Source: Mycobacterium sp. ITM-2016-00317 (GTDB lineage Bacteria > Actinomycetota > Actinomycetes > Mycobacteriales > Mycobacteriaceae). Taken from it: 64,000 nt of DNA. Under the pieces are notes generated by a model, which was given only the letters and a program-made list of their open reading frames with translations, did not search any database and was not told where the DNA came from. The translations under genes were made by a program, and so were the position numbers. The stretch is taken from positions 1,240,001-1,304,000 of the forward strand of contig NZ_CP134399.1 in the NCBI RefSeq assembly GCF_002968295.1. The letters are read 5' to 3'. Below are positions 3,728 to 12,533 of this stretch, piece after piece (position 1 is the first letter of the stretch; each line of letters opens with the position of its first letter).

Positions 3728-3751
3728 TGCAACCGTGGTGCAACGGTGACG
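3728..3751 (+). promoter_or_regulatory. TGCAAC-N5-TGCAAC operator, copy A
   Basis: Two direct TGCAAC half-sites start at 3728 and 3739 (11 bp, one helical turn), followed by GGTGACG. The second half-site ends 51 bases before the aldehyde dehydrogenase ATG. The same arrangement recurs before the dehydratase genes (12511) and, on the minus strand, before the LuxR-type regulator (11623-11607). It is a candidate activator site of the island. Confidence 0.6.
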
Positions 3752-3795
3752 CGCGTAGCGTGAGTGACGCACACCACACGAGCAGGAGGCTCCCC

Positions 3796-5319
3796 ATGAC
3801 TGTGTACGCCCGCCCCGGGGCTGACGGCTCCCTCATGTCGTTCAAGTCCCGCTACGACAACTTCATCGGTGGCCAATGGGTGCCGCCGACCGCCGGCCGC
3901 TACTTCGAGAACCGGACACCGGTCACCGGGCAGACGTTCTGCGAGGTCGCCCGGTCTGATGAGAGCGATATCGAGAAGGCCCTCGACGCCGCGCACGCCG
4001 CCGCCCCGGCCTGGGGTAAGACCTCGGCCGCCGAGCGTGCCGTGGTCCTGAACAAGATCGCCGACCGTATCGAGGAGAACCTCGAGTCGCTCGCGCTGGC
4101 CGAGTCCTGGGACAACGGCAAGCCGATCCGCGAGACGCTCAACGCGGACCTCCCGTTGGCCGTGGACCACTTCCGCTACTTCGCGGGATGCATCCGCGCG
4201 CAGGAGGGCTCGCTGTCGGAGGTGGACGACGACACCGTCGCCTACCACTTCCACGAGCCGCTCGGCGTGGTGGGCCAGATCATCCCGTGGAACTTCCCGA
4301 TCCTGATGGCGGTCTGGAAGCTGGCGCCGGCGCTGGCCGCGGGGAACGCGATCGTGCTCAAGCCGGCAGAGCAGACCCCGGCCTCGATCCTGTACCTGTT
4401 CGAGATCATCGGTGATCTGCTGCCTGCCGGCGTGGTCAACGTCGTCAACGGCTTCGGTGTCGAGGCGGGCAAGCCGCTGGCCTCGAGCAACCGGATCGCC
4501 AAGATCGCGTTCACCGGTGAGACCACCACGGGACGGCTGATCATGCAGTACGCGTCGCAGAACCTGATTCCGGTGACACTGGAGCTCGGCGGCAAGAGCC
4601 CGAACATCTTCTTCAACGATGTGCTCGCCGCCAACGACAGCTACCAGGACAAGGCGCTGGAGGGCTTCACGATGTTCGCCCTCAACCAGGGCGAGGTGTG
4701 TACCTGCCCGTCCCGGTCGCTGATCCAGGCCGACATCTACGACGACTTCCTTGCACTCGCGGCGATCCGCACCAAGGCCGTGCGCCAAGGTGATCCGCTG
4801 GACACTGAGACGATGATCGGCGCCCAAGCCTCCAACGACCAGCTGGAGAAGGTCCTGTCCTACATCGAGATCGGCAAGAGCGAGGGCGCCCAGGTGCTCA
4901 CCGGCGGCGAGCGCGCCGAGCTCGGCGGCGATCTCAGCGGCGGGTACTACGTCGCGCCGACGATCTTCACCGGCAGCAACAAGATGCGGGTGTTCCAGGA
5001 GGAGATCTTCGGTCCGGTGGTGACCGTGACGTCGTTCGCCGACTACGACGAGGCCATCTCGATCGCCAACGACACGCTCTACGGCCTGGGTGCTGGAGTG
5101 TGGAGCCGCGACGGCAACACTGCCTACCGCGCCGGCCGGGACATCAAGGCGGGCCGGGTATGGACGAACTGCTATCACCAGTACCCGGCGCACGCGGCGT
5201 TCGGTGGTTACAAGCAGTCCGGTATCGGCCGGGAGAACCACAAGATGATGCTCGACCACTACCAGCAGACCAAGAACCTGCTGGTGAGCTACAGCAACAA
5301 CGCCCAAGGCTTCTTCTGA
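3796..5319 (+). CDS. NAD-dependent aldehyde dehydrogenase
   Basis: A 507-residue ALDH superfamily enzyme with catalytic Cys302 in GEVCTCPSR, general-base Glu263 in LELGGKSPN, and the PWNFP and FTGET coenzyme-binding segments. It oxidises an aldehyde to its acid with NAD(P)+. It resembles the 'EPTC-inducible' / AcoD-type dehydrogenases of actinomycetes. In this island the likely substrates are 3-hydroxypropionaldehyde or propionaldehyde made by the B12 dehydratase (inference). The ATG follows AGGAGG. It carries the TGCAAC-N5-TGCAAC element in its promoter region. Confidence 0.9.
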
Positions 5320-5332
5320 TCGAGTTCGTGGT

Positions 5333-5357
5333 GGCCCGGGTGTCGATCACCCGGGCC
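5333..5357 (+). terminator. Hairpin after aldehyde dehydrogenase
   Basis: A perfect 10-bp stem GGCCCGGGTG/CACCCGGGCC with a 5-base loop, 14 bases after the stop. It probably separates the aldehyde dehydrogenase transcript from glpK. Confidence 0.6.
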
Positions 5358-5406
5358 GCTGCGGCTTGGTTCCCTACGGGTACAGTCCTTTTGGACGCTA
5401 GGAGCG

Positions 5407-6927
5407 ATGTTGCCCGAGTTCGTCGCCGCCGTTGACCAGGGCACCACAAGCACCCGTGCCATGATCTTCGATCATGCCGGGGCCGAGGTGGGCCGCTCCC
5501 AGCTGGAGCATGAGCAGATCATGCCCCGGACCGGGTGGGTGGAGCACAACCCGGTGGAGATCTGGGAACGCACCGGTTCGGTGCTGGCCACCGCGCTGAA
5601 CCGGACGAACCTGACGACCACCGACCTCGTGGGGTTGGGCATCACCAATCAGCGCGAGACGACGCTGGTGTGGAACCGGCGCACCGGGCGGCCCTACTAC
5701 AACGCGATCGTCTGGCAGGACACTCGTACCGACCGGATCGCGAGTGCACTGGACCGCGACGGTCGAGGGGATGTCATCCGGGAGAAGGCGGGACTGCCGC
5801 CGGCCACCTACTTCTCGGGCGGCAAGATCCAATGGATTCTGGAGAACGTCGACGGTGTCCGAGAAGCCGCGGAGAACGGCGATGCGCTCTTCGGGACCAC
5901 CGACAGTTGGGTGGTCTGGAACCTGACCGGCGGGCACCGCGGCGGGGTGCACGTCACCGACGTGACCAACGCCAGCCGCACCATGCTGATGAATCTGGAG
6001 ACCCTGGACTGGGACGACGAACTGTTGTCCTTCTTCGGGATTCCTCGGCAGATGCTGCCACAGATCCGGCCCTCCTCGTCCCCGGAACCCTATGGGGTGA
6101 CCGTGCCCACCGGACCCATGGACGGCGAGGTCTCGGTGACCGGCATCCTCGGTGACCAGCAGGCGGCGATGGTCGGGCAGGTGTGCCTGAACGCCGGCGA
6201 AGCCAAGAACACCTACGGCACAGGCAATTTCCTGCTGCTCAATACCGGTGAGAAGATCGTGCGGTCGCAGAACGGCCTACTGACCACGGTCTGCTACCAG
6301 TTCGGGGATGCCAAACCCGTGTACGCGCTGGAGGGTTCGATCGCGGTGACCGGGTCGGCGGTGCAGTGGCTGCGCGACCAGCTCGGCATCATCAGTGGCG
6401 CGGCCCAGAGTGAGTCATTGGCCCGGCAGGTGGACGACAACGGCGGGGTGTACTTCGTGCCGGCATTCTCGGGGCTGTTCGCGCCGTACTGGCGGTCGGA
6501 TGCCCGGGGCGCGATCGTCGGGTTGTCCCGGTTCAACACCAACGCGCACGTGGCGCGCGCGACGTTGGAGGCGATCTGCTACCAGAGCCGTGATGTCGTC
6601 GACGCGATGGAAGCCGATTCCGGTGTGCACCTTGAGGTCCTGAAAGTCGACGGTGGCATCACGGCCAACGATCTGTGCATGCAGATCCAGGCCGACGTGC
6701 TGGGCGTCGACGTGGTCAAACCGGTCGTCGCCGAGACCACCGCGCTGGGCGCGGCCTACGCCGCCGGGCTCGCGGTGAATTTCTGGGACGGACCCGATGA
6801 CCTGCGGGCCAACTGGCAGGAGGGCAGTCGCTGGAACCCGGCGTGGTCTGAGCAGCAACGCAACGACGGGTACGCAGGCTGGCAGAAGGCGGTATCCCGC
6901 ACGCTGGACTGGGTCGACGTCTCTTGA
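5407..6927 (+). CDS. glpK: Glycerol kinase
   Basis: A 506-residue FGGY-family kinase that phosphorylates glycerol to sn-glycerol 3-phosphate with ATP. Diagnostic segments are the N-terminal phosphate loop [27 protein letters not shown], the [10 protein letters not shown] region, TYGTGNF and the C-terminal [10 protein letters not shown] signature. Length is typical. TAGGAGCG lies just before the ATG. It sits in the dehydratase island with a glycerol facilitator gene, which points to glycerol as one substrate of the region. The nucleosidase gene follows with a single-base gap, so the two are probably translationally coupled. Confidence 0.95.
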
Positions 6928-6928
6928 C

Positions 6929-11560: not shown

Positions 11561-11606
11561 CGACTCCGTCCTGCCAGTTGGCGGGCCGAACGTTAGTGCG
11601 CGGCGC

Positions 11607-11623
11607 GTTGCAGCAGGGTTGCA
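11607..11623 (-). promoter_or_regulatory. TGCAAC-N5-TGCAAC operator, copy C
   Basis: Read on the minus strand, TGCAAC at 11623-11618 and again at 11612-11607, with 11-bp spacing as in copies A and B. It lies between the FhuF-like gene and the LuxR-type regulator and faces the regulator. Confidence 0.6.
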
Positions 11624-11634
11624 TCGTGACGAGA

Positions 11635-12414
11635 TCAGCGCGCAGGCGCCCGTTGGGAGGTGTCCGGTTGCGGCAGCACGCAATCACCGCAGAAGCCCGA
11701 TCGAGGTGCCTGATAGAACAGGCAGCAGCTGCGGCGGATGAACGTGCCGGTGTCGAACGTCCCGGTGTCGTGTAGCGGTGCGGTTTCCAGCAGTGCCCGC
11801 ACCAGGGCCCGTCCTGCGCGCTCGCGGTCGGGTCGAGCCGACGACAGGACCGTGACCGCTCCGTTGGCGGCGGAGGAGACGTTGCCCCAACTGATTTTCG
11901 GCGACAGGGAAACCGCCGTGGAGAGAATCTCGTTGAGCGGGTCGAAGAGTTCGTACAGTGCTGAATCCGCTATGGCGCAGGCCGCGTCAGCTGGGCCCGC
12001 CACGGTGACGAATTCGATCTCGTCGGCGGCGAACAGCACTGAATGACCGACGGGGCGCCAACGAATCGATGTCCTGTTCACTACCGGTAGGGCCGAATGG
12101 CAGATCGCGGCGCCGATCAGCGGGGAAAGTATGCGTGCCGCGATACCGAGTTGAAATGACGAGGCTGCCAGCCGGACAGAAACCTCGTCCCGGTCGCATG
12201 TCATCGCCGTGGCGATCGCCTGCCTGCTGCGGTCCACCAGATCCCGGACCGTCGTCTGCTCGAGCAGCGACGACAGCGGGTGCCAGACCGGACCACCGGG
12301 CGCGGATACGTCCGGCAGCGCGAAGTACTCGCCGAGTCGGGCGGTCTGCGCAAGAAGCGCGGCGGCGTCCGGGGGCGGGTCCGGCGGCGAGCTGAAAGAC
12401 GTGCACATGGTCAT
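11635..12414 (-). CDS. FhuF-like [2Fe-2S] protein
   Basis: About 259 residues ending in RRSCCLFYQAPRSGFCGDC. The spacing C-C-x10-C-x2-C is the [2Fe-2S] signature of FhuF-type ferric-siderophore reductases. The N-terminal part has no recognised motif. FhuF proteins donate electrons to metal complexes. Here, among B12 genes, it could reduce cob(II)alamin for the adenosyltransferase rather than act on siderophores (inference). It is divergent from the dehydratase operon and upstream of the LuxR-type gene on the same strand. The start is uncertain (ATG at 12414 or 12408); no strong ribosome-binding site is seen. Confidence 0.75.
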   Translation of the reverse strand: MTMCTSFSSPPDPPPDAAALLAQTARLGEYFALPDVSAPGGPVWHPLSSLLEQTTVRDLVDRSRQAIATAMTCDRDEVSVRLAASSFQLGIAARILSPLIGAAICHSALPVVNRTSIRWRPVGHSVLFAADEIEFVTVAGPADAACAIADSALYELFDPLNEILSTAVSLSPKISWGNVSSAANGAVTVLSSARPDRERAGRALVRALLETAPLHDTGTFDTGTFIRRSCCLFYQAPRSGFCGDCVLPQPDTSQRAPAR

Positions 12415-12443
12415 GCCACGGTAGCCACCACGGAGCCCCTCCA

Positions 12444-12464
12444 AGGAAAGCCCAGTACTTTCCT
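12444..12464. promoter_or_regulatory. Inverted repeat in divergent promoter region
   Basis: AGGAAAG-N7-CTTTCCT, a perfect 7-bp inverted repeat, 30 bases upstream of the FhuF-like start and ~137 bases before the dehydratase small subunit. It is a possible operator or a 5' leader hairpin of the FhuF-like transcript. Confidence 0.4.
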
Positions 12465-12510
12465 GGCCGAACGGTCAGGTCCCGAGCGTCCGCCCTCCGC
12501 GACGCCTCGG

Positions 12511-12533
12511 TGCAACCCCGCTGCAACGTGACG
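12511..12533 (+). promoter_or_regulatory. TGCAAC-N5-TGCAAC operator, copy B
   Basis: TGCAAC at 12511 and 12522, followed by GTGACG. The second half-site ends 73 bases before the dehydratase small-subunit ATG. Same spacing and orientation relative to the gene as copies A and C. Confidence 0.6.

What the first reader, a model, noticed from the sequence alone, without database searches (positions are those of the whole stretch)
3728..12533. Three copies of a TGCAAC-N5-TGCAAC direct repeat define a candidate regulon
Copies at 3728 (before aldehyde dehydrogenase), 11623-11607 (minus strand, before the LuxR-type regulator) and 12511 (before the dehydratase operon). All have the same 11-bp period, the same orientation to the downstream gene and lie 46-73 bases before its start; two share a following GTGACG. 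For a fixed 12-base pattern at fixed spacing, well under one match is expected by chance in 64 kb. A one-turn direct repeat suits an activator. Candidate binders: the LuxR-type protein or the GAF regulator of this island.
Basis: seen in the sequence. Interest (0 to 1): 0.85.

Follow-up and report, generated by a model that had tools for sequence, protein, structure and literature searches.

The report
Aldehyde-pathway activator boxes across Actinobacteria
The repeated DNA word found here is very probably the docking site of a neighbouring sensor-activator protein; the same site recurs in front of aldehyde-making and aldehyde-removing genes in many soil actinobacteria, so these genes are probably switched on together.

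Summary
The three TGCAAC-N5-TGCAAC copies are the only exact ones in the 6.06-Mb genome. Each lies exactly 11 bp before a -10-like hexamer (TAGCGT, TAACGT, CACAAT). In 148 genus genomes the repeat tracks the GAF regulator at 1300-2598, not LuxR: 55 of 56 genomes with the GAF gene carry it; in the 92 without, 20 carry it, at chance level (23 matches, control 29). It precedes the aldehyde dehydrogenase (ALDH) in 52 of 52 mycobacterial GAF loci that hold one, in 34 of 34 ALDH loci from 20 other genera within 2 mismatches, and the dehydratase operon in 54 of 78 named loci, 33 of them with no LuxR seen. The AlphaFold model is a DhaR-like GAF sensor fused to a SARP-type DNA-binding domain, a class that binds 11-bp direct repeats over the -35 region. 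Best reading: the GAF-SARP protein activates ALDH and B12-dependent aldehyde-producing enzymes (diol dehydratase, in relatives sometimes ethanolamine ammonia-lyase); LuxR is a target. DNA binding, activation and inducer are inferred, not measured.

The parts
1300..2598 (+). GAF-SARP regulator, predicted binder of the repeats (432 aa)
   Evidence: Pfam GAF E 9e-9; AF2 model 41-225 like DhaR N-domain, 228-432 like AfsR SARP and EmbR; presence tracks the motif in 148 genomes
2650..3597 (+). alpha/beta hydrolase, between regulator and box in some relatives only
   Evidence: Pfam Abhydrolase_6; gene order
3728..3744 (+). activator box 1, TGCAACCGTGGTGCAAC
   Evidence: conserved at ALDH in relatives
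3756..3761 (+). -10-like hexamer TAGCGT, 11 bp after box 1
   Evidence: YANNNT at +11 in 51 of 52 ALDH rows
3796..5319 (+). aldehyde dehydrogenase, core target
   Evidence: Pfam Aldedh E 3e-155
5407..6927 (+). FGGY kinase, glycerol kinase-like; has its own box in four relatives whose island lacks ALDH
   Evidence: Pfam FGGY; L144, L163, L169, L171
6929..7681 (+). nucleoside phosphorylase-superfamily protein
   Evidence: Pfam PNP_UDP_1
7688..8092 (-). HbpS-like protein
   Evidence: Pfam HbpS-like E 1e-38
8363..9070 (+). aquaglyceroporin-type channel (GlpF-like; start uncertain)
   Evidence: Pfam MIP
9102..9680 (+). cobalamin adenosyltransferase (PduO-type)
   Evidence: Pfam Cob_adeno_trans
9684..10811 (-). 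tetrapyrrole methylase with NAD-binding domain, downstream of LuxR
   Evidence: Pfam TP_methylase, NAD_binding_7
10808..11560 (-). LuxR/NarL-type regulator; predicted target, not binder
   Evidence: Pfam GerE, no receiver-domain hit at E 0.001; absent from most genomes that carry the motif
11590..11595 (-). -10-like hexamer TAACGT, 11 bp after box 2
   Evidence: 9 of 9 LuxR rows
11607..11623 (-). activator box 2, TGCAACCCTGCTGCAAC
   Evidence: conserved before LuxR orthologs
11635..12408 (-). FhuF-like protein with C-terminal 2Fe-2S motif
   Evidence: Pfam FhuF_C; NCBIfam FhuF below cut-off
12511..12527 (+). activator box 3, TGCAACCCCGCTGCAAC
   Evidence: 54 of 78 named loci have a box within 1 mismatch before the small subunit
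12539..12544 (+). -10-like hexamer CACAAT, 11 bp after box 3
   Evidence: YANNNT at +11 in 14 of 15 dehydratase rows
12601..13029 (+). diol/glycerol dehydratase small subunit
   Evidence: Pfam Dehydratase_SU
13036..14766 (+). diol/glycerol dehydratase large subunit
   Evidence: Pfam Dehydratase_LU
14760..15356 (+). dehydratase medium subunit (start uncertain)
   Evidence: Pfam Dehydratase_MU
15341..17230 (+). dehydratase reactivase large subunit (start uncertain)
   Evidence: Pfam DDR, DDR_swiveling
17130..17591 (+). reactivase small subunit-like (Dehydratase_MU match; start uncertain)

Best explanation
The 17-bp repeat is the operator of the regulator encoded at 1300-2598, a fusion of a DhaR-like GAF sensor and a SARP-type (OmpR-like winged helix plus BTA) DNA-binding domain. 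Two protomers should sit side by side on the two 11-bp repeats, over the poor -35 region at a fixed distance from the -10 hexamer, and recruit RNA polymerase as AfsR does. Targets in this genome are ALDH (with the glycerol kinase behind it, operon inferred), the LuxR gene and the B12-dependent diol/glycerol dehydratase operon, so the enzyme that makes a toxic aldehyde is co-induced with the one that removes it. SHOWN: the boxes, their nearly invariant spacing to a -10-like hexamer, their conservation, and their association with the GAF gene across genomes. INFERRED: DNA binding by this protein (from phyletic pattern, predicted fold and geometry), activation rather than repression, and the inducer, most likely an aldehyde or its precursor, because ALDH is the constant target and the others (diol dehydratase, in relatives ethanolamine ammonia-lyase) produce aldehydes.
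Against: No binding or expression data. The ALDH box is usually next to the GAF gene, so part of the co-occurrence is linkage; boxes far from the GAF gene (G055 ALDH box, M. sediminis L356, three EutB promoters, and others) are fewer. 7 of 48 named loci with a GAF hit lack a dehydratase box within 1 mismatch, although two of them, Streptosporangium and Nonomuraea, have an exact ALDH box. Of 40 GAF loci fetched from other genera, 6 had no usable ALDH; 5 of these 6 (L312, L313, L315, L319, L322) show no box within 2 mismatches. Two Prauserella genomes have boxes but only partial GAF hits. In 9 of the 34 ALDH promoters of other genera the hexamer is at +10, not +11 (strings). The winged-helix match to Pfam Trans_reg_C is weak (79 of 102 members at E up to 1, best 2.8e-4; window protein E 0.058, below the cut-off), and the model's pTM is 0.55. 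Of the 16 EutB regions in GAF+ genomes that are neither downstream of ALDH or the reactivase nor the one-mismatch case G119, 13 have no box.
Confidence: 0.86

Rival explanations
1. The LuxR-type protein binds the repeats, autoregulates itself and controls the two other promoters.
For: Its own promoter carries a box in 9 of 9 rows, one with a mismatch, and in 13 of 15 named loci with enough upstream sequence; all 21 named loci with a LuxR ortholog have the dehydratase box.
Against: Orthologs (E < 1e-50) in only 9 of 148 genus genomes while 55 of 56 GAF+ genomes carry the motif; 33 of 54 dehydratase boxes are in stretches with no LuxR found, two of them too short to tell; genomes G128, G077, G135, G141, G021 (one mismatch) and G042 (exact) have the dehydratase box without it. 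NarL-type regulators usually bind inverted repeats (recalled); the MnoR site is called palindromic in PMC11303327.
Confidence: 0.05
2. A third, unlinked regulator (for example another OmpR/PhoB-family or SARP protein) binds the boxes.
For: 11-bp direct repeats suit the whole OmpR/PhoB/SARP class, of which such genomes have many members (recalled).
Against: It would have to be present and absent together with the GAF gene in 148 genomes, and in the other genera examined the box usually lies between the GAF gene and ALDH.
Confidence: 0.08
3. Same binder, but the protein represses from the -35 region and is released by the inducer.
For: An operator over the -35 region can also block RNA polymerase (general knowledge).
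Against: Near-invariant spacing to the -10-like hexamer at four promoter classes and the AfsR-like predicted fold with the same register fit activation; a repressor would not need such fixed spacing.
Confidence: 0.08
4. Chance recurrence of a short word in one island.
For: With 2 mismatches the motif is no more frequent than chance.
Against: 0.29 exact copies expected per genome, 3 found within 9 kb; conservation across many genera.
Confidence: 0.005

Closest known systems
AfsR / SARP family (Streptomyces coelicolor), PDB 8hvr and 8k60
   Different: SARP module is at the C-terminus behind a GAF sensor, not at the N-terminus with NOD/TPR; predicted targets are carbon metabolism, not antibiotics; repeat word TGCAAC.
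EmbR (Mycobacterium tuberculosis), PDB 2fez and 2ff4
   Different: EmbR has a C-terminal FHA domain (PMC10936776 passage) in place of the N-terminal GAF domain.
DhaR (E. coli dihydroxyacetone kinase operon regulator), PDB 4lrx
   Different: DhaR is an AAA+/sigma54-type activator (recalled); here the output domain is SARP-like. The window protein scores 53.7 bits against a DhaR cut-off of 551.
MnoSR and MSMEG_1543/MSMEG_1546 (M. smegmatis), PMC11303327
   Same: ALDH MSMEG_1543 and propanediol dehydratase MSMEG_1546 are both lower in the mnoS/R deletion under carbon starvation, with no MnoR site found (passages).
   Different: The passages seen name no direct regulator for them; whether the M. 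smegmatis locus has the GAF gene and box was not checked here.

Membership tests
SARP-type activator | OmpR-like winged helix followed by all-helical BTA domain | tested here: met
SARP-type activator | Target promoters with direct repeats of 11-bp period at a fixed distance from -10 | tested here: met
   77 of 80 mycobacterial ALDH, GLPK, LUXR and SU rows have YANNNT at exactly +11 (51/52, 3/4, 9/9, 14/15); in other genera 25 of 34 at +11 and 9 at +10
SARP-type activator | SARP module at the N-terminus | tested here: not met
   Here it is C-terminal, behind a GAF domain
SARP-type activator | Binds the repeats and recruits RNA polymerase | not testable with these tools
   needs EMSA and in vitro transcription
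DhaR-like regulator | GAF-containing N-terminal sensor domain | tested here: met
DhaR-like regulator | Equivalog score for full-length DhaR | tested here: not met
   53.7 bits against cut-off 551, N-terminal stretch only
LuxR/NarL protein as binder | Present where the motif is present | tested here: not met
   9 of 148 genomes against motif in 55 of 56 GAF+ genomes

The most novel reading that the evidence does not exclude
A regulon found in many actinobacterial families in which a GAF-SARP fusion activator senses an aldehyde (or its immediate precursor) and, by AfsR-like sigma adaptation, switches on B12-dependent aldehyde-producing enzymes (diol/glycerol dehydratase, ethanolamine ammonia-lyase) together with the aldehyde dehydrogenase that detoxifies their product, as an alternative to packing them in a microcompartment.
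Probability: 0.5. Interest if true: 0.75.

Novelty: new variant of a known kind. Interest (0 to 1): 0.64.

Why it matters
It gives a widespread regulator group, mostly annotated only as a GAF, helix-turn-helix or generic transcriptional regulator (listings), a predicted operator, regulon and mechanism in one step. It extends SARP-type activation from antibiotic clusters to carbon metabolism, and it offers a direct-regulator hypothesis for the reported joint drop of MSMEG_1543 and MSMEG_1546. The fixed box-N11-(-10) promoter can be tested with one purified protein.

Tried and rejected
Chance: rejected by whole-genome count and conservation. LuxR as binder: rejected as the main reading by phyletic pattern. 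Additional weak boxes in the own genome: the box-N11-YANNNT pattern at up to 3 mismatches gives 87 places against 120 for the control; only the 3 island sites are exact, the next (4446149) has 1 mismatch and was not followed. RNA element: no Rfam hit at gathering score in window 1-24000. Autoregulation of the GAF gene through this box: none within 1 mismatch in 28 upstream regions. Boxes within 1 mismatch before other island genes in the 80 named loci: FhuF 1 of 29, HbpS 0 of 76, CobA 0 of 21, PduO 0 of 8, GlpF 6 of 36, glycerol kinase 5 of 17. A reversed-sequence control (46 of 78) is invalid, because TGCAACGT reads the same backwards; it was replaced by dinucleotide shuffles. For the same reason the reversed-pattern control is, if anything, too high in GAF+ genomes. 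Profile comparison of the GAF family with LuxR found no relation.

Literature: none of the titles or abstract beginnings listed by searches describes this motif or a GAF-SARP fusion. Searches (TGCAAC, direct repeat, actinobacteri, dehydratase; GAF domain with Streptomyces antibiotic regulatory protein) returned 0 papers. The library holds open-licence papers only. Papers opened: PMC11303327 (outline with abstract, passages, section 24) and PMC10936776 (passages only). All others: search listings only.

Limits of counts: rests on tables transcribed by hand, GAF+ meaning E < 1e-70. The one GAF+ genome without the motif, G008, is 70% complete and its GAF hit is a fragment at a contig end. The 60 mycobacterial loci were fetched because they hold GAF hits or the island; 9 of the 61 (window included) hold no ALDH, and L145 and L182 have no exact box. 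Of the 80 named loci, 2 gave no small subunit and were dropped (n = 78). One search covers 20 fetched regions of my choosing, 19 with an ALDH. The 40 loci from other genera were picked by me to span genera among 154 genomes with a match; 34 had an ALDH with upstream sequence. In one search, 11 loci were tested of 13 with a box and no GAF in the stretch; the other two (L329, L331) carry the contig lengths of G112 and G096, which have the GAF gene. In one search, 53 of 57 EutB matches were examined; the 4 left out are fragments in G089 (no GAF gene), and L459 is only 503 bases.
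Full report
OBSERVATION. They precede an aldehyde dehydrogenase (ALDH, 3796-5319), a LuxR-type regulator (10808-11560, minus) and a B12-dependent diol/glycerol dehydratase operon (12601 on), as Pfam confirms. Mismatched copies are no more frequent than chance. The host is a Mycolicibacterium-like genome: its GAF protein is 96% identical to one listed from M. vaccae.

PROMOTER GEOMETRY. A -10-like hexamer starts exactly 11 bp after each copy: TAGCGT, TAACGT and CACAAT. In 60 fetched mycobacterial loci plus the window, YANNNT stands at +11 in 51 of 52 ALDH rows, 3 of 4 glycerol kinase rows, 9 of 9 LuxR rows and 14 of 15 dehydratase rows; among the distinct sequences of each class no other offset from 5 to 25 holds more than 2. 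The repeat thus covers the -35 region at a fixed distance from the -10, the layout of an activator that contacts RNA polymerase.

WHICH PROTEIN. Of 148 genomes of the genus, 56 have the GAF regulator (E < 1e-70) and 55 of these carry the exact motif (104 matches, reversed control 30). Of the other 92, 20 carry it, with 23 matches against 29 for the control, that is, chance. The one exception is an incomplete genome (70%). A LuxR ortholog is in 9 of 148. Six genomes have the dehydratase without LuxR and still carry the box, exact (G042) or with one mismatch (five), before the small subunit. All 52 mycobacterial GAF loci that hold an ALDH have an exact box before it. ALDH genes not beside this GAF gene lack it: 0 exact in 19, one with a single mismatch. 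G012 and G085 have the hydrolase-ALDH pair, lack the GAF gene and have no box; G044, also without the GAF gene, has a one-mismatch box. Because the ALDH box usually adjoins the GAF gene, linkage explains part of this. Some boxes are far from it: the ALDH box of G055 is at 5188012 and its GAF gene at 1288761; the dehydratase box of M. sediminis (L356) lies in the stretch 4675081-4696793 and its GAF gene at 2533033; and G082, G142 and G037 have exact boxes before a permease-EutB operon on another contig or 2 Mb from the GAF gene.

REACH. The GAF gene (E <= 1e-40) is found in 154 of 201 genomes and 26 of 31 genera of the family. Of 40 GAF loci fetched from other genera, 34 had an ALDH with upstream sequence; all 34, from 20 genera, have the box within 2 mismatches (31 within 1), with the hexamer at +11 in 25 and, as the printed strings show, at +10 in the other 9. 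Of the 6 without a usable ALDH, one (L301) has an exact box and five (L312, L313, L315, L319, L322) have none within 2 mismatches. A scan of named genomes with the dehydratase (best 80 of 482 kept) gave 80 loci; 54 of 78 with a small subunit have the box within 1 mismatch and 300 bp upstream (0.07 expected), among them Mycolicibacterium, Prauserella, Amycolatopsis, Planotetraspora, Geodermatophilus, a Klenkia MAG and Kineosporia. All 30 ALDH genes (70% identity or more) with upstream sequence in those loci have a box within 1 mismatch. Against: 7 of 48 loci with a GAF hit have no dehydratase box (Modestobacter, Klenkia marina, Streptosporangium, Nonomuraea, two Pseudonocardia, Conexibacter), though the Streptosporangium and Nonomuraea loci have an exact ALDH box. 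Thirteen loci with a box have no GAF gene in the stretch; of the 11 genomes searched whole, 9 have one elsewhere at 45% identity or more and the two Prauserella genomes have partial hits only.

FUNCTION. The constant target is ALDH. Variable targets make aldehydes with B12: diol/glycerol dehydratase, and in relatives ethanolamine ammonia-lyase (EutB). Of 36 EutB regions examined in GAF+ genomes, 11 lie downstream of ALDH on the same strand, 8 downstream of the dehydratase reactivase, 4 have their own box before the permease (G119 with one mismatch; G082, G142, G037 exact), and 13 show neither within the stretch held; of 17 regions in GAF- genomes none has a box within 1 mismatch. The inducer is therefore probably an aldehyde or a direct precursor (inference). 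In M. smegmatis, ALDH MSMEG_1543 and propanediol dehydratase MSMEG_1546 were reported to drop together in an mnoS/R deletion without an MnoR site (PMC11303327, passages), which an intermediate regulator of this kind could explain.

VERDICT. The regulon claim stands and extends far beyond the genus; the binder is most probably the GAF-SARP protein, and LuxR is a recruited target. New variant of a known kind: SARP-type activation with a GAF sensor, in carbon metabolism. Binding, activation and inducer remain to be measured.

Noticed in passing
window 3762-3780 and ALDH/glycerol kinase promoters of relatives: A second conserved element follows the -10 in mycobacterial ALDH promoters (consensus .AGTGAcgacCgaCACA over 51 distinct sequences; the 4 glycerol kinase promoters similar), a loose inverted repeat of the form TGTG-N8-CACA over the likely start site; no such element shows in the LuxR and dehydratase consensus. 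Possibly the operator of a second regulator, CRP-like or other.
   Followed up: partly
L148:3993-7051: In G119 a one-mismatch box and CACAAT hexamer stand before a permease-EutB (ethanolamine ammonia-lyase) operon instead of the dehydratase operon.
   Followed up: yes
upstream of ALDH paralogs, L245-L250 and others: A second mycobacterial ALDH gene has no box but often shares a different promoter resembling TAGTGTGAGC..GTTACAC; the regulator is unknown.
   Followed up: no
L241-L244, GAF hits at 35-36% identity: A second GAF regulator, about 35% identical over the GAF part and 51-53% over the winged helix in the three loci where that part matched, lies beside another ALDH gene that lacks the TGCAAC box, so its operator word probably differs: a natural pair for specificity studies.
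   Followed up: no
window 11635-12408: An FhuF-like 2Fe-2S protein is divergent from the dehydratase operon in the mycobacterial islands; in the printed stretches of other genera only two weak hits (31-32%, Pseudonocardia) were seen. Role unknown.
   Followed up: no
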